Shown: in pieces, positions 25,731 to 58,161 of the stretch
Position numbering within the stretch: position 1 is the stretch's first letter
Layout: each line of letters begins with the position of its first letter
From: a virus
IMG/VR virus record: IMGVR_UViG_3300028608_000008
Span: 60,246-124,245 of that record
DNA: 64,000 nt
Strand: one strand, 5' to 3'
Position numbers and translations under genes: made by a program
The notes under the pieces: generated by a model
The model's database searches: none
The model's input: only the letters and a program-made list of their open reading frames with translations
What the model was told of the DNA's origin: nothing

Positions 25731-25784
25731 TAAACGACCAAACACACAAACATTTTTTCAGTGAACCGTAAAAAGGAATACATC

Positions 25785-26603
25785 ATGACTACTGCAACCC
25801 ACACCACCGTTGCCATGCTGACCGTTGCTGTTGCTCAACTGGCTCGCCTGAACCGCGAAGCGAAAAAGAATGGCGGTGAAGCGCTGTTCTCGCTGGGCAC
25901 CGATATGGGCAACGGCGTTACTTGGCGCGAACTGAGCGCTTGGGCAAAAGCGCAAAAGGCAAAAGCTGCCGAAGTTTCCGCCGAACCGGTGAAACCAACC
26001 GCTGGCAAAAAGGCGCCTGCCGGTGCCAAGCGTGAACCGTCGAAGCTGTCCACCATTTCGGATGCAATCAATCCGAAATCGGCTGCAAACAAATCGGAAG
26101 CCGTCGCGCTGAAAGCCAGCGAAGTTCGCGACCAAATTGTTTTGATCGGTCGCACCAAAGAAACCGTAGTTCGTATCGGCACCGAGAAATCCAGCGGCAT
26201 GCGTGTTGCGACCACTGACAAAGGCACCATCATTCCTTTCGCCAGCATCGAGCGCAACAATCGTGGCAATCTGCGCGTGAAGCCTGCCGACGAACAAATG
26301 GTTTCGAAGGCCGCGCCGAAAGCTACTCCGAAAGTCGCTGCCGCCCCGGTCAAAGAAGGCGTGCGCAATCTGGAAATCGGCACCAGCACCAACATTTCGG
26401 CGGCATCGTATGACAAAGCCCGCAAAGTGTTGACCGTTGCTTTCCACAGCGGTTCGGTTTACGAGTACAAAGGCGTGACCCTGAAAGACATTAAAGAGTT
26501 TGAAGCCGCCAAGTCGAAAGGCGCTCATATCTCCAAGGTCATCAAACCTGCCAAAGACGTTGTTTGTGTAGCCAAGGCTCCACGCAAACAAAAGGCAGCG
26601 TAA
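25785..26603 (+). CDS. KTSC-domain protein
   Basis: 272 residues from ATG 25785 with AAAAAGG upstream (the GTG at 25761 is less likely). N-terminal ~55 residues helical, then a Lys/Ala/Pro-rich linker, a strand-rich middle (118-168), another linker, and at ~200-255 a KTSC domain: S-x-x-I-S-A-A-S-Y-D..L-T-V-A-F-H-S-G-S-V-Y-E-Y. KTSC domains occur at the ends of tRNA-synthetases and in many phage proteins and may bind nucleic acid. The rest is unknown. Confidence 0.78.
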   Translation: MTTATHTTVAMLTVAVAQLARLNREAKKNGGEALFSLGTDMGNGVTWRELSAWAKAQKAKAAEVSAEPVKPTAGKKAPAGAKREPSKLSTISDAINPKSAANKSEAVALKASEVRDQIVLIGRTKETVVRIGTEKSSGMRVATTDKGTIIPFASIERNNRGNLRVKPADEQMVSKAAPKATPKVAAAPVKEGVRNLEIGTSTNISAASYDKARKVLTVAFHSGSVYEYKGVTLKDIKEFEAAKSKGAHISKVIKPAKDVVCVAKAPRKQKAA

Positions 26604-26618
26604 CAGCAACGAAAATTC

Positions 26619-26646
26619 AAGGCGATTCGAGGGAGTCGCCTTTTTT
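26619..26646 (+). terminator. Intrinsic terminator related to the RNA element
   Basis: AAGGCGA/TCGCCTT stem around TTCGAGGGAG, followed by six T. The loop closely matches that of the structured RNA copy at 25685 (TTCAGGGAG). Confidence 0.8.
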
Positions 26647-26664
26647 CGTATGAGGTGCAAACAA

Positions 26665-26892
26665 ATGGCTATCGGCTGGGCCAAAGAAGGCGACGGCGAA
26701 CTAGAGGCCGAAAACGAAATCGCCGAAGGCATCCAGAATGCACGCGACGAACTCGCAAAGTCGCAAGGTGCCGAAGAACAAACGTGGTGCATTGATTGTG
26801 GCGATTTTATTGACGAAGGGCGGCGCCTTGCCATTCCCAACGTTCAACGCTGCACACACTGCCAATCAAAACTGGAAAGGAAAACCCGATAA
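26665..26892 (+). CDS. TraR/DksA-type zinc-finger protein
   Basis: 75 residues from ATG 26665 with GAGG nine bases upstream (ATG 26650 lacks one). The C-terminal C42-x-x-C45 ... C63-x-x-C66 finger, with I-P-N-V-x-x-C-T-H-C-Q and the Asp/Glu-rich helical N-terminus, is the F-plasmid/phage TraR pattern. TraR binds the RNA polymerase secondary channel and mimics DksA with ppGpp, changing promoter choice. The stop overlaps the start of the ACP-domain gene (TAATG), so the two are coupled. Confidence 0.82.
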   Translation: MAIGWAKEGDGELEAENEIAEGIQNARDELAKSQGAEEQTWCIDCGDFIDEGRRLAIPNVQRCTHCQSKLERKTR

Positions 26893-28901
26893 TGCAAACT
26901 CCAATGACCAAAGGCCAACGCAAACAAGCCCGCGACGATTGGCATCTGCGCTGGAATCAAGCGCTCAAACATACCGGCCTTGACCGCATTTACAAAACCA
27001 ATCTGCGCTTTGATATGACCACAAACAAAGCCAACAAGGAAACCCGGTTCACGGCCATTGGCTTTGCCCATATTCAGAATATCCCACAAACGTTTACCAT
27101 CGTCGGCTACGCAACCGGCGAGCAGAAAAATGGCCGCGCCTGTTTCGATATCTACGACCTATCCTATAGCCTCGGTTCGGATGTTGAAATGCAAATCGAC
27201 ACCGACGCCGAAGATATGCCGCCGTTGGCTGGCGACCTGACCGAAATCGGCCCGGCCATTCTCAACCGCATTTTCGAAAGTTTGCACGCGCAGTTGCCAG
27301 CGGTCGAACGCTCCAAAGCGGAAGCCGAACAAGATCGCCGCGCCTGTGACGAAACCCTGAAAAAGTTGGTACAGGCAGCGGTCAAGAAATGCCACGCTAA
27401 AGGCATCGCGTTTCAGTTTATTGAAGCGTACCGCTTTTTCAGTGACACCCGCGTAGAACAACCGTACTACGCAAAAGCTGTTTTCAAGATCAACGAACAG
27501 CACAGCGACATTCGTTTCAAGTTTAAGCGTATCGGCACCGAACAGGAATTCGTTCTGGAATCGGTCACGGTTGACGGGCGGGATCGCGAAATCAATTTCC
27601 GCGTGTCGCCGTTCACTGTTCAAAACGCAATCGTTGTCGGTATGCGCAACGCAATCAAATGGATCAAAGAGGGATTCAAGATGGACTCCACTGCAATCGA
27701 AAAAGACCCGGTAGCCGAACAAGTTGGCGCCAAGAAAACCCCGGCTGCGAAAAAGCCAGCCGTGAAAAAGACCGCCAAGGTTATCGAAAACGGCGAACTG
27801 AAAGATGCGCCAAAAGGCGCGGTCAAAGTCGTGAAGAAAAAGCCAGCCGTCAAACGTGCAGCCCGTCCGACCAAAGCTGAACTGGCCGCGAAGCCAATCC
27901 CGAAAATCAAAACCAGCCCGGACGATTTCAAGAATCTGGCAAACGGCATTATGGGCAAACCTCCGGTGGAAGAACTGAACGAAGACCAGCAACAGATTGT
28001 TCGCGTCTTTGCCGATCAACTCGGTGAGCCAGTTTCGAAATTCACAATGGCGACCGAACTCACGGCGACCGGCGCTGACGAACTCGACCTCGTTGAAATC
28101 GTGATGCAAATCGAAGAAGAATTCGAGTTTGATATGCCCGACAACATCGAGCACGAATGCAAAACCATTGGCGACCTGTACACCCACGTCGCCGAGAAAA
28201 AGGCCGAACTCGCCGCAGCCGCCGCAGCACAACCCAAAACCAAAGCGCGCCGCGCTTCGAAAGCGAAGGTCGAAGCGGAAACCGGCAAACAACCGCGCAT
28301 GACCACGCCGAAACCGAAGGCGAAAGGCAAACCGAAAGCCGCTGGTTCTGCAAACTTCGACGCGGTTAATGACGGCAAGCTGGCGAACCGTTCGAACAAC
28401 CAAACGGCGAAACCTTTGCCTGCGCCGAAAACCAAAGCCGATTCGCTCAAGTGGGATTCGCTGGACGAGGCGGAACTGGTGCGCATGCGCAAACAGTTGG
28501 TGACGACCGCCACCCGAATCAAACTGTTGGAACGGGCGAAAGAAAACGGCGTGACCGCCTCGGTTCAAGTGACCGCTGACGTGAAAGCGAAAATGAAAGA
28601 CGAACTGTTGATTGCCGAAATCAAACAGTTGGCAAACCTCTACGGCTTCACGTTCTACAAAGCGAAAAAGGTCGAAGACTTCGCCGACAAGTTTACGCTC
28701 AAGCGCACGTATATGGACGGCACCAAAGTCGCAATCGTGATTCATTACGACGACAGTTCGCAACACCGTTTCGTAATGGAAACCGATAAGCTGCCGAAAG
28801 GCGCGAAGAACAGCCTCCACACGCTGCCGGTCGAACTGAAAACCAAAGCGCAGATGTTGGCCGTACTGCGCAAGCTGGGCGCCACCAACAACCGGAAGTA
28901 A
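26892..28901 (+). CDS. Large protein with acyl-carrier-protein-like domain lacking the Ser
   Basis: 669 residues. Residues 1-250 are a soluble N-terminal region, 275-345 are Lys/Pro/Ala-rich, ~364-440 form an acyl-carrier-protein-like domain, 440-500 are again basic and disordered, and the last ~150 residues are helical with a strand-rich end. The ACP motif reads GADELDLVEIVMQIEEEFEF where carrier proteins have GADSLD: the 4'-phosphopantetheine Ser is Glu397 (bases 28080-28082). The domain can thus fold like ACP but not carry acyl groups. ACP is known to bind SpoT, MukB and others; an ACP mimic beside a TraR gene is intriguing (inference). Confidence 0.75.
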   Translation: MQTPMTKGQRKQARDDWHLRWNQALKHTGLDRIYKTNLRFDMTTNKANKETRFTAIGFAHIQNIPQTFTIVGYATGEQKNGRACFDIYDLSYSLGSDVEMQIDTDAEDMPPLAGDLTEIGPAILNRIFESLHAQLPAVERSKAEAEQDRRACDETLKKLVQAAVKKCHAKGIAFQFIEAYRFFSDTRVEQPYYAKAVFKINEQHSDIRFKFKRIGTEQEFVLESVTVDGRDREINFRVSPFTVQNAIVVGMRNAIKWIKEGFKMDSTAIEKDPVAEQVGAKKTPAAKKPAVKKTAKVIENGELKDAPKGAVKVVKKKPAVKRAARPTKAELAAKPIPKIKTSPDDFKNLANGIMGKPPVEELNEDQQQIVRVFADQLGEPVSKFTMATELTATGADELDLVEIVMQIEEEFEFDMPDNIEHECKTIGDLYTHVAEKKAELAAAAAAQPKTKARRASKAKVEAETGKQPRMTTPKPKAKGKPKAAGSANFDAVNDGKLANRSNNQTAKPLPAPKTKADSLKWDSLDEAELVRMRKQLVTTATRIKLLERAKENGVTASVQVTADVKAKMKDELLIAEIKQLANLYGFTFYKAKKVEDFADKFTLKRTYMDGTKVAIVIHYDDSSQHRFVMETDKLPKGAKNSLHTLPVELKTKAQMLAVLRKLGATNNRK

Positions 28902-28953: not shown

Positions 28954-29172
28954 ATGGACGTTTTTGTTTATTCAAACGTTTTCGCGCTGGTAGGACTGCT
29001 GACAATGGGCACGGCTGCCCTGATTATCATTCTGATTATTCAGTCACTCCAACTTCGCGATTGGCGCAAACGGGCGCTCATTGCGGAATCCGAATGCAAA
29101 CAAATGTACTCGCTGTACGGGCCACACCACGCCAAGGATATTTCCCCAAATGGAAAAAGTTTCTCGCTCTAA
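28954..29172 (+). CDS. Single-pass membrane protein
   Basis: 72 residues; ATG after GGGGATTCCGCC. Hydrophobic segment ~9-31 (VFALVGLLTMGTAALIIILII), then a charged tail with one Cys. Its end overlaps the next gene by 23 bases. Confidence 0.68.
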   Translation: MDVFVYSNVFALVGLLTMGTAALIIILIIQSLQLRDWRKRALIAESECKQMYSLYGPHHAKDISPNGKSFSL

Positions 29173-30070
29173 GGTTCAATACGCCCCACAAATTGAACGC
29201 ATGCGTGATTCGTTTGTCACTGACTTCGAACACAACGGCCATCCTGAGTACCGCATTCCACAGGCCGACTTCGAAAATCGCGCAGCACTCTTTCTTCGCT
29301 ACGGCGAAACCGAAGAAGGCCGTTTCAAAAACATGATGCGCGACCTGATGAAAACCGCGCAACTGAAAATCAGCTTCCTTGAAGGTGAAGTGATTTTCAC
29401 CAAAAGCACTGCGCCGGTTCCGCAGGCAAACAAAACCCGCGCCGCTGATTACCGGACCCGCATTCCGCGTCCGCAGTGGCAAGGCATTCTCGACACGGCA
29501 ATGCCACGGATCATTGCCGACCTGAAACACCGGACGGCACCAACCACGTCGTATACGCACGCGCAGTTTTTCGACCTGCTGACGTTCTGGCCTAGCGATG
29601 CAATGTTTGTCGAATTGCTGGAAATACGTTTGGGCAAACTCGGTTACGATATCGAAGTGCTCAAGTCGGTCGTGCGTCTGAGCAACCGCAACGCCGGGGC
29701 TGCGAAGGTTACGAAAACTCCGAAGCCTCCAATCATCAAAATGTTTAACGCGCAGGAACTGTTTGCGGTTCTGGAGAAAACCTTCTGCCAGACGCTTGAG
29801 GAACTGCGTGAAATGAAGTTTGCAGGCGCGTACAGTCACGTCGTCACCCTGCAAGATCACCCGACGGATTCCGAAAAAGGTCCGCAAAAGATTTTCTTTG
29901 TTGACGAGGATATGCAAGTCGTCGGCGGGCGCAAGGTTGACGAAATCGAACTGCGCGTTGGCGATATCGTGCTGACCAATGAAGCGGGCGCCAAACAATT
30001 CCGCAAGGCAGTCCGCTTCGTCAACGAATCACCACGCCGCATGTGCAGCGTGCGCAAAATCAAATTCTAA
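29150..30070 (+). CDS. Hypothetical protein
   Basis: 306 residues from ATG 29150, the first in-frame ATG with an upstream AAGGA; the open frame extends to 29081 inside the previous gene. Helical first ~200 residues with a basic linker, then a strand-rich C-terminal part (HVVTLQDHP; IFFVDEDMQVVGGRK; GDIVLTNEAG). No family recognised. Confidence 0.72.
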   Translation: MEKVSRSKVQYAPQIERMRDSFVTDFEHNGHPEYRIPQADFENRAALFLRYGETEEGRFKNMMRDLMKTAQLKISFLEGEVIFTKSTAPVPQANKTRAADYRTRIPRPQWQGILDTAMPRIIADLKHRTAPTTSYTHAQFFDLLTFWPSDAMFVELLEIRLGKLGYDIEVLKSVVRLSNRNAGAAKVTKTPKPPIIKMFNAQELFAVLEKTFCQTLEELREMKFAGAYSHVVTLQDHPTDSEKGPQKIFFVDEDMQVVGGRKVDEIELRVGDIVLTNEAGAKQFRKAVRFVNESPRRMCSVRKIKF

Positions 30071-56769: not shown

Positions 56770-58161
56770 ATGCGTTGTGAATACCACAATATCGGTTTCA
56801 GCCTGAATGAAACCATGATGGCGGAACTGCCATACACCCAAGCGCTGTATCGCCACGAACCGAAAAACGGTCAAGCGGCTGCTGACGCCGATTTCCAACA
56901 AGACGTGAAAGACTATTTCGCGTTCCCGCTGGCCCACTCCGAAAACATGCCGGTTTACGAACTGGGTATCAGTGCGTGCGCTGAAATCGAAACCGTTTTC
57001 GAACTGTCGTATGCCATGCTGGTTGAAGCGCTGGGCAAACTGTTTGCTCGCGGCAATGCGACCGTGCTGGAATACATGGGCTGCAACTTCCTGCGCAAAC
57101 ATCCGAGTTTCATCGACTACGCGAAGTTTACCTATCACGATTCCGGTTCGGCGCGCCAGTCCATCTACGGCCGTTTCGACGCCGTGTTCAATCCGGAAAC
57201 CGATAAGGTCGAAGGCATTTACGAATTCAACGGCGACACGCCGACCATGCTTTTCGAATCGGCGCTGTTGCAGAATCAAATCTGCGAACGCATTACCGGC
57301 GACGGCGAAATGCAGTTGAACAGCTTCTACCCGCTGCTGACTTCGCTTTTCGAAAACATGGGCGAAGTGCCGGGCAAGGTCGGCATCATCTGCGACAACA
57401 ATTCGTTTGAAGACGTGGCGACCTGTGAAGTTCTGGCGCAGGTTATCGGTGACGAATGCGGAAACGAAATCCGTTACGTCGATACCACCGAAATCGACTT
57501 CGACTACAACAATAAACACAATCCGTTCTGCGCGGGCGACGATCACTTCGCGGTAATGTTTGCGTTGGTGCCGTGGGAAGAAATCATCGAATCGTTTTCC
57601 AAACACTGCCCGCAGGCGATGGAAAAGTGGCAAGACTGGGCGGGTCACGTCACCTTCTTGGAACCGGCGTGGCGCTGGTTTATCAGCAACAAAGGCATTT
57701 GGGCATTCGTGACCCACTTGTTTGAAACCGACGAAGATTTCAAACTTCGTTACGCGGAAGTTCCGTTGCTGCCGACCTACCTGTCGCAAGATCGTTTCAT
57801 CGAGAAAGGCGAGCCGTTTGTTGGCAAACCGAAAATCGGCCGTATGTCCAACAACATCGAAATCTTCAAAGCGGATGGTTCGCATGAGTTTTCGACCGAT
57901 GGCGCATACGCTGGCGACGACCGCGTGTTTCAAATGTACGCGGAACCGTTCAAGGTAAACGGTCGCCACAATTTCATCATCGGCATGTTTATGGTGCCGG
58001 ATGAAGCCACCAACTACAACACCATGCGCAATGCTACGGCTGCAACGCTGTGCATTCGCGAATTCGATTCGCCGGTACTGGGCATCTGCAATGAGCGTTT
58101 CATTCCGCACATTCTGATCGAAGACGGCGAAGACGTTGACGGCGAGGAAGACTTCGAATGA
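56770..58161 (+). CDS. YgiC/glutathionylspermidine-synthase-like ATP-grasp protein
   Basis: 463 residues; ATG after AAGGAATTTCCTA. GRFDAVFNPETDKVEGIYEF and N-G-D-T-P-T-M-L-F-E-S-A match the family pattern R-F-D..E-x-N-x-D-T-P-T-x-L-x-E-A. FLEPAWRWFISNKGIWAF, LLPTYL and the later KPKIGRMSNN region are also in the right order for the synthase domain of glutathionylspermidine synthase and YgiC/YjfC proteins (ATP-grasp amide ligases). In-family members couple peptides to polyamines or remain uncharacterised. The preceding lipoprotein copies the ygiB-ygiC gene order. Confidence 0.78.
   Translation: MRCEYHNIGFSLNETMMAELPYTQALYRHEPKNGQAAADADFQQDVKDYFAFPLAHSENMPVYELGISACAEIETVFELSYAMLVEALGKLFARGNATVLEYMGCNFLRKHPSFIDYAKFTYHDSGSARQSIYGRFDAVFNPETDKVEGIYEFNGDTPTMLFESALLQNQICERITGDGEMQLNSFYPLLTSLFENMGEVPGKVGIICDNNSFEDVATCEVLAQVIGDECGNEIRYVDTTEIDFDYNNKHNPFCAGDDHFAVMFALVPWEEIIESFSKHCPQAMEKWQDWAGHVTFLEPAWRWFISNKGIWAFVTHLFETDEDFKLRYAEVPLLPTYLSQDRFIEKGEPFVGKPKIGRMSNNIEIFKADGSHEFSTDGAYAGDDRVFQMYAEPFKVNGRHNFIIGMFMVPDEATNYNTMRNATAATLCIREFDSPVLGICNERFIPHILIEDGEDVDGEEDFE

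What the first reader, a model, noticed from the sequence alone, without database searches (positions are those of the whole stretch)
27981..28205. Acyl-carrier-protein-like domain with Glu in place of the pantetheine serine
Inside the 669-residue protein, residues ~364-440 follow the carrier-protein pattern closely (GAD-E-LDLVEIVM..EEEFEF, then a helix after KTIGDLY). The invariant Ser of GADSLD is Glu397. The fold would remain but cannot be loaded with 4'-phosphopantetheine. Known ACP partners include SpoT and MukB, so this may be a permanent unloaded (or charge-mimicking) ACP decoy. It is fused between Lys/Ala-rich linkers, and the gene is coupled to a TraR-type gene that acts on the same ppGpp-dependent machinery.
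Basis: partly seen in the sequence, partly recalled or inferred. Interest (0 to 1): 0.8.

Follow-up and report, generated by a model that had tools for sequence, protein, structure and literature searches.

The report
Unloadable acyl-carrier-protein domain in jumbo-like phage
A large phage protein carries a perfect-looking acyl carrier protein domain whose obligatory cofactor-bearing serine is glutamate, so it can never carry a fatty-acid chain; the same serine-to-acid swap turns out to be shared by a whole family of known phages (wrongly labelled as carrier proteins) and to recur in unrelated phages and even in exported bacterial proteins.

Summary
Residues ~364-440 of the 669-aa ORF (26892-28901) are a genuine ACP fold (Pfam PP-binding 33 bits, above cut-off; AlphaFold pLDDT 95-98; all 50 listed PDB hits are ACPs, TM-score 0.77-0.90). 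The cofactor serine is Glu397 (GAA, at least two base changes from any Ser codon), so 4'-phosphopantetheine cannot be attached. Helix II, the partner-recognition helix, is otherwise kept (11/16 identical to E. coli AcpP; rest 11/60). It is not a one-off. An acidic residue fills this site in every Ackermannviridae genus checked (9/9 genomes; 269 records hold the gene, largely annotated 'acyl carrier protein'), in Pseudomonas jumbo phage Lu11 twice (Asp, Glu; its relative HRDY3 keeps Ser at the same gene slot), and in about ten unrelated phage lineages. In a motif survey ~3% of viral but only ~0.04% of bacterial ACP motifs are acidic; nearly half of the bacterial cases are exported or membrane-anchored. 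Best reading: an ACP fold reused as a cofactor-free protein-docking module. The SpoT decoy idea is disfavoured (SpoT reportedly does not bind apo-ACP), and the TraR linkage is real here but not conserved. Inhibition of host ACP-dependent enzymes remains possible; the partner is unknown.

The parts
26892..28901 (+). 669-aa phage protein containing the Ser-less ACP domain
   Evidence: Open frame; Pfam/PHROG hits; AlphaFold model. No full-length relative in phage records or viral contigs.
27981..28211 (+). ACP-fold domain, residues 364-440
   Evidence: PF00550 33 bits; pLDDT 95-98; Foldseek PDB ACPs TM 0.77-0.90.
28080..28082 (+). Glu397 codon (GAA) at the position of the 4'-phosphopantetheine serine (Ser36 of E. 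coli AcpP)
   Evidence: Sequence and pairwise alignment; at least two base changes from any Ser codon.
26892..27701 (+). N-terminal region, residues 1-270: predicted two alpha-beta4-alpha-like units (low to medium confidence), no homologue found
   Evidence: Secondary structure; no significant fold match; hhalign shows no sequence-level repeat.
27702..27965 (+). Lys/Ala-rich basic linker, residues 271-358 (pI 10.3), predicted disordered
28230..28466 (+). Lys/Ala-rich basic linker, residues 447-525 (pI 10.4), mostly predicted disordered
28467..28898 (+). C-terminal region, residues 526-669: predicted helix-strands-helix unit, no homologue found
   Evidence: low to medium pLDDT; phmmer against fetched loci negative.
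26650..26892 (+). DksA/TraR-type C4 zinc-finger gene, overlapping the start codon of the ACP gene by one base (TAATG)
   Evidence: PF01258 40.8 bits, PHROG 54; sequence.
26619..26642 (+). Intrinsic-terminator-like hairpin with T tail just upstream of the TraR-ACP pair; suggests a separate transcription unit
   Evidence: 10-pair stem, TTTT tail; such hits are only slightly above chance in this region.
29081..30070 (+). Next large ORF; distant homologue of a Lu11 gene lying ~4.3 kb from Lu11's own acidic ACP gene gp353
   Evidence: 21% identity over 282 aa, E 2e-11 pairwise.

Best explanation
The domain is a true acyl-carrier-protein fold that has lost its carrier function for good: Glu397 replaces the serine that receives 4'-phosphopantetheine. 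It most likely works as a cofactor-free docking module. The acidic recognition helix II is kept and would bind a basic patch on a partner protein, while flexible basic linkers tether it between the folded N- and C-terminal parts of the 669-aa phage protein. The acidic residue at the first turn of helix II stabilises the helix and/or stands in for the phosphate charge of the missing cofactor. Shown: the fold, the Glu, the kept helix-II surface, the basic linkers, the recurrence and conservation of acidic residues in other phages. Inferred: that it binds a protein, and through helix II. Unknown: whether the partner is a host ACP-dependent enzyme or another phage protein.
For: Fold and Glu. Partner-contact residues of AcpP (D35, L37, D38, V40, E41, M44, E47, E48, F50, D56) all identical, helix II 11/16 versus 11/60 elsewhere. 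No ACP synthase (PF01648) in this contig, Lu11, HRDY3 or G007. Not an isolated decay event: acid in 9/9 Ackermannviridae sampled over four named genera plus one unclassified Aglimvirinae phage, six Glu and three Asp, while much of the rest varies; Lu11 gp353 Asp and gp378 Glu. Complete IMG/VR scans at the site, G** and AA*/AC* codons: D 18, E 16, A 4, V 3, G 2, N 2, T 0, K 0, although A, G, T and N are one base change from Ser and D, E are two. Acid in 4 of 120 viral motif hits against 31 in ~82,000 expected bacterial ones, ~90-fold. Same gene slot with Ser in HRDY3/G007 and Asp in Lu11. Bacterial acidic ACPs often sit in exported or anchored proteins, where there is no cofactor enzyme: the fold is used without cofactor there. 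Virion mass spectrometry reports an ACP in Eneladusvirus (PMC7760394) and one spectrum of the Ackermannviridae ACP (PMC10892097).
Against: No partner is known and no interaction was tested. The 669-aa protein has no relatives outside the ACP domain, so conservation of Glu397 in this phage itself cannot be measured. In one family (L022/L069/L139/L187/L271) the site holds E, D, N, A or V, which looks like drift. Helix II of the surveyed set is conserved partly because the search motif required it.
Confidence: 0.62

Rival explanations
1. Antagonist of host lipid synthesis: the phage domain behaves like permanent apo-ACP and occupies ACP sites on host enzymes such as the glycerol-3-phosphate acyltransferase PlsB or holo-ACP synthase, slowing phospholipid synthesis or redirecting it.
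For: Whole ACP recognition surface kept except the serine. [quoted passage not shown] coli growth (PMC3896788; Keating 1995 by title, cited in PMC8557913 and PMC13343975). All viral acidic ACPs surveyed lack an export signal (0/34), so they are in the cytoplasm with these enzymes.
Against: Only a single domain in a 669-aa protein, an unlikely form for titrating enzymes that normally see abundant ACP. Acidic ACPs also occur in exported bacterial proteins that cannot act this way. No linked lipid genes found.
Confidence: 0.2
2. ppGpp/transcription decoy: the domain binds SpoT (or RelA) while the coupled TraR protein acts on RNA polymerase.
For: One-base overlap with a TraR-type gene; ACP-SpoT binding is established in E. 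coli (PMC3340395).
Against: SpoT reported not to bind apo-ACP (PMC3896788); ACP does not bind RelA (PMC3340395); TraR and ACP genes are ~21-22 kb apart in HRDY3 and G007, and PF01258 is absent from Lu11 and PaBG.
Confidence: 0.05
3. Pure structural spacer or virion assembly part: the ACP fold is just a stable acidic bead binding the protein's own basic linkers or other virion proteins, with no host target.
For: Acidic domain (pI 4.05) between basic linkers (pI 10.3-10.4); an ACP detected in virions of Erwinia jumbo phages (PMC7760394); Ackermannviridae gene sits beside a confirmed structural vWA protein in LIMEstone1.
Against: A spacer would not need the AcpP contact residues of helix II, which are kept at identity. 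In Sajous1 virions only one ACP spectrum was found, which the authors warn may be contamination.
Confidence: 0.18
4. Evolutionary relic: a captured host ACP that lost its serine and is drifting.
For: One viral family shows E/D/N/A/V at the site; Lu11 gp378 has lost several helix-II hydrophobics.
Against: Glu needs at least two base changes while A/G/T/N need one, yet acid dominates; D/E only across Ackermannviridae; contact residues intact here.
Confidence: 0.1

Closest known systems
Acyl carrier protein AcpP (type II fatty acid synthesis; TIGR00517, PF00550)
   Same: Four-helix fold, helix-II recognition residues, acidity, GAD-x-LD motif.
   Different: No serine, so no 4'-phosphopantetheine; embedded in a 669-aa phage protein; below the NCBIfam equivalog cut-off.
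Ackermannviridae 'acyl carrier protein' (Vi01 CBW37990, LIMEstone1 ORF107, Ag3 gp126, CBA120 orf142)
   Same: Phage ACP-like domain with Glu or Asp at the serine.
   Different: Small proteins of about 105-113 aa beside a vWA-type virion gene; about 25% identity in the domain (LIMEstone1-type L012); no shared extra domains.
Pseudomonas phage Lu11 gp353 and gp378
   Same: Related jumbo phage; acidic residue at the serine (Asp, Glu); gp353 lies ~4.3 kb from a homologue of the window's next gene.
   Different: 140 and 241 aa, different flanking parts; grouping with the window domain in the tree is unsupported (SH-aLRT 31).
HRDY3 XDJ15383/XDJ15384 and contig G007 ACP
   Same: Same phage group; ACP domain on a longer phage protein (XDJ15383, G007) or alone (XDJ15384).
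   Different: Serine retained, so still loadable.
Apo-AcpP / AcpP S36T of E. coli
   Same: ACP fold without cofactor; apo-ACP still binds MukB and inhibits glycerol-3-phosphate acyltransferase (PMC8602292, PMC3896788).
   Different: Laboratory or transient state, neutral residue, not a naturally fixed form.

Membership tests
Acyl carrier protein (carrier function) | ACP four-helix fold | tested here: met
   AlphaFold pLDDT 95-98; Foldseek PDB ACPs TM-score 0.77-0.90.
Acyl carrier protein (carrier function) | PF00550 profile match above the gathering score | tested here: met
   33.1 bits versus 20.8.
Acyl carrier protein (carrier function) | Serine at the D-S-L motif for 4'-phosphopantetheine | tested here: not met
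   Glu397, codon 28080-28082.
Acyl carrier protein (carrier function) | NCBIfam equivalog cut-off (TIGR00517, 70.45 bits) | tested here: not met
   46.6 bits.
Acyl carrier protein (carrier function) | Attached 4'-phosphopantetheine | not testable with these tools
   Needs mass spectrometry; excluded chemically at this position by the lack of Ser.
Acidic phage ACP-like class (as in Ackermannviridae) | Asp or Glu at the serine site with helix-II acids D35, D38, E41, E47 kept | tested here: met
Acidic phage ACP-like class (as in Ackermannviridae) | Single common origin of the class | tested here: inconclusive
   Viral tree needs 11-13 label changes, at least 3 forced by starred branches; support poor. 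50% identity clustering keeps the lineages apart.
SpoT/RelA-targeting decoy | Binding to SpoT | not testable with these tools
   Literature speaks against binding of unmodified ACP (PMC3896788).
Conserved TraR-ACP operon | Adjacency of DksA/TraR and ACP genes in relatives | tested here: not met
   Adjacent only in the window; ~21-22 kb apart in HRDY3 and G007, PF01258 absent from Lu11 and PaBG.

The most novel reading that the evidence does not exclude
Phages have repeatedly evolved unloadable, charge-fixed ACP mimics. The acid at the cofactor site imitates the phosphate of holo-ACP, and the domain binds host ACP-dependent enzymes or regulators as a takeover factor, so hundreds of phage genes annotated 'acyl carrier protein' are in fact host-binding mimics.
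Probability: 0.2. Interest if true: 0.85.

Novelty: new variant of a known kind. Interest (0 to 1): 0.62.

Why it matters
ACP is defined by its cofactor serine. A class of phage ACPs that has fixed an acid at that site, across an entire cultured phage family (269 records) and in several jumbo phages, means that a common phage annotation is probably wrong in function and that the fold has a second, cofactor-free use. Because Ackermannviridae infect laboratory E. coli and Salmonella and have a small stand-alone version, the question 'what does an ACP do without its cofactor?' becomes directly testable there. The bacterial exported versions point to the same use of the fold outside phages. In nine literature searches of the open PMC library no paper describing the substitution turned up, which is not proof that none exists.

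Tried and rejected
Full-length relatives: none in phage records or viral contigs; the 100%-identical contig L230 does not reach the gene. Internal repeat of the flanking alpha-beta units: suggested by predicted secondary structure, not by sequence (hhalign); fold search of residues 1-275 gave nothing significant from a low-confidence model. One common origin of all acidic ACPs: not supported. Acid merely the easiest mutation: rejected, since Asp and Glu need two base changes from Ser and Ala, Gly, Thr, Asn one. Sequencing error: rejected for the same reason and because relatives are acidic. TraR partnership as a conserved module: rejected. Terminase marker search in the own contig: PF03237 gave no match, nothing learned. 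A first residue tally failed from a typing error in the pattern and was redone.

Full report
Observation. The ORF at 26892-28901 encodes 669 aa. Residues ~364-440 match the carrier-protein profile PF00550 over its full length at 33.1 bits (cut-off 20.8) and PHROG 5934 at E 1e-15. The serine is replaced by Glu397 (GAA, 28080-28082). NCBIfam's acyl_carrier equivalog is matched only below its cut-off (46.6 versus 70.45 bits).

Fold. AlphaFold with an alignment of 42 ACP domains gives pLDDT 95-98 over the domain with the canonical helices, Glu397 being the first residue of helix II. Foldseek finds ACPs for all 50 PDB hits listed (TM-score on target 0.77-0.90); global E-values are modest (2.8e-3 at best) because the domain is 11% of the query. 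The rest of the protein has low to medium confidence: two predicted alpha-beta4-alpha-like stretches at the N-terminus and one helix-strands-helix stretch at the C-terminus, without detectable homologues. The domain is strongly acidic (pI 4.05) and hangs between basic, mostly disordered linkers (pI 10.3-10.4).

What is kept. Against E. coli AcpP, helix II is 11/16 identical and the remainder 11/60; D35, L37, D38, V40, E41, M44, E47, E48, F50 and D56 are identical. Which residues AcpP uses for partner contacts is established knowledge. So the recognition face is kept while the attachment point is gone.

Which phage. The contig is a 124-kb IMG/VR fragment. Its baseplate hub protein is 39.5% identical over 97% to Pseudomonas jumbo phage PaBG, with HRDY3 and Lu11 next. 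In this group, HRDY3 has two ACP genes with Ser and contig G007 one with Ser, Lu11 gp353 has Asp at the corresponding slot between shared flanking genes, Lu11 gp378 is a second, divergent ACP with Glu, and PaBG has none. The gene after the window's ACP gene is a distant homologue of a Lu11 gene ~4.3 kb from gp353. No ACP synthase was found in the contig or in Lu11, HRDY3, G007.

How widespread. A motif scan of IMG/VR for Asp/Glu at the site gave 76 loci; a good part are ACP domains by their flanking sequence, the rest chance hits. With a longer motif open at the site, 120 viral hits were Ser 110, Glu 2, Asp 2, Ala 2, Gly 2, Asn 1, Leu 1. Complete scans for G** and AA*/AC* codons gave Asp 18, Glu 16, Ala 4, Val 3, Gly 2, Asn 2. 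In 84,980 bacterial and archaeal genomes the acidic motif occurs in only 30 places (31 matches), while 194 of 200 Pseudomonadota genomes carry the open motif, nearly all with Ser as far as listed: ~0.04% against ~3%, Fisher p 2e-7.

Ackermannviridae. Searching with the LIMEstone1 domain finds 269 phage records. All nine genomes read, from Kuttervirus, Taipeivirus, Limestonevirus, Agtrevirus and an unclassified Aglimvirinae phage, have Glu (6) or Asp (3), never Ser. Many are annotated 'acyl carrier protein', one even 'phosphopantetheine attachment site protein'. This shows long-term maintenance of an acidic site in one family, though Glu/Asp are one mutation apart. By contrast eight other phage ACPs read for comparison (GAP32, eugene 12A10, P-HM2, R6L, 424E50-1, 249E41-1, phiXF1, Bajun) keep Ser.

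Origins. At 50% identity the non-Ser domains fall into 41 clusters, and the viral tree needs 11-13 changes between acid and non-acid, at least 3 forced by well-supported branches. With the site masked, the window domain scores about equally with Ser and acidic ACPs. Several independent replacements are therefore likely.

Bacterial acidic ACPs. 13 of 31 (14 if the signal-peptide-like start of the L202 protein is counted) have a strongly hydrophobic segment upstream of the ACP domain, as in a signal peptide, lipoprotein or membrane anchor, against 0 of 34 viral acidic and 1 of 110 viral Ser ACPs. This is a simple hydropathy heuristic. It suggests that acid at this site is a general mark of an ACP fold used without cofactor, which lowers the weight of 'charge mimic of holo-ACP' as the only reason.

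Mechanism. I commit to a cofactor-free docking module (0.62). Literature narrows the host-target options: SpoT reportedly cannot bind apo-ACP (PMC3896788), IscS binding needs Ser36 (PMC13343975), MukB accepts apo-AcpP (PMC8602292), and apo-ACP inhibits glycerol-3-phosphate acyltransferase (PMC3896788). So if the target is a host ACP partner, a PlsB-like acyltransferase or a MukB-type partner is more plausible than SpoT. The TraR adjacency is real (TAATG overlap; terminator-like hairpin upstream) but not conserved.

Verdict. Acyl carrier protein by fold, not by function; a new variant of a known kind.

Noticed in passing
L200-L229 (bacterial contigs), e.g. L206:6965-7381, L223:7274-7642, L211:567-1127, L202:2-3760: Rare bacterial ACP domains with Asp/Glu at the cofactor serine are often in exported, lipoprotein or membrane-anchored proteins; L202 has two tandem acidic ACP domains at the end of a very large protein with a signal-peptide-like start. 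A possible extracytoplasmic use of the ACP fold.
   Followed up: partly
L278:3917-4240, L280:2432-2749 and 269 Ackermannviridae records: The 'acyl carrier protein' of Ackermannviridae has Glu or Asp instead of Ser in all nine genomes read; the common annotation implies a carrier function it cannot have.
   Followed up: partly
L242:1003-1728 (-) = Lu11 gp378: Unannotated divergent ACP domain with Glu at the serine (LADETDRAE) at the N-terminus of a 241-aa hypothetical protein.
   Followed up: partly
L022, L057, L067, L069, L076, L139, L187, L271-L273, L275, L276: A viral ACP family (GADxFDT[IV]E) in which the serine site holds E, D, N, A or V: apparently free drift, in contrast to Ackermannviridae.
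   Followed up: no
L144:11977-13218 (-): 414-aa phage protein with an ACP-like domain (Gly at the serine) followed by what looks like a helix-turn-helix segment; possible ACP-DNA-binding fusion.
   Followed up: no
L005:1977-2537, L006:1977-2540: Vibrio phages P018-4 and 10AMN carry a Ser-containing ACP fused to a C-terminal alpha-beta segment conserved between the two phages.
   Followed up: no
25761-26603: KTSC-domain protein with Lys/Ala-rich linkers of the same style as the ACP protein, immediately upstream of the TraR-ACP pair.
   Followed up: no
56770-58161: Glutathionylspermidine synthase-like gene (PHROG 6215, E 2e-104) in the phage contig.
   Followed up: no
L007:1-4231 (CAKLQH020000007.1): A record labelled Acinetobacter phage holds rpmF-fabD-fabG-acpP in bacterial order, so it looks like host chromosome rather than phage.
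   Followed up: no
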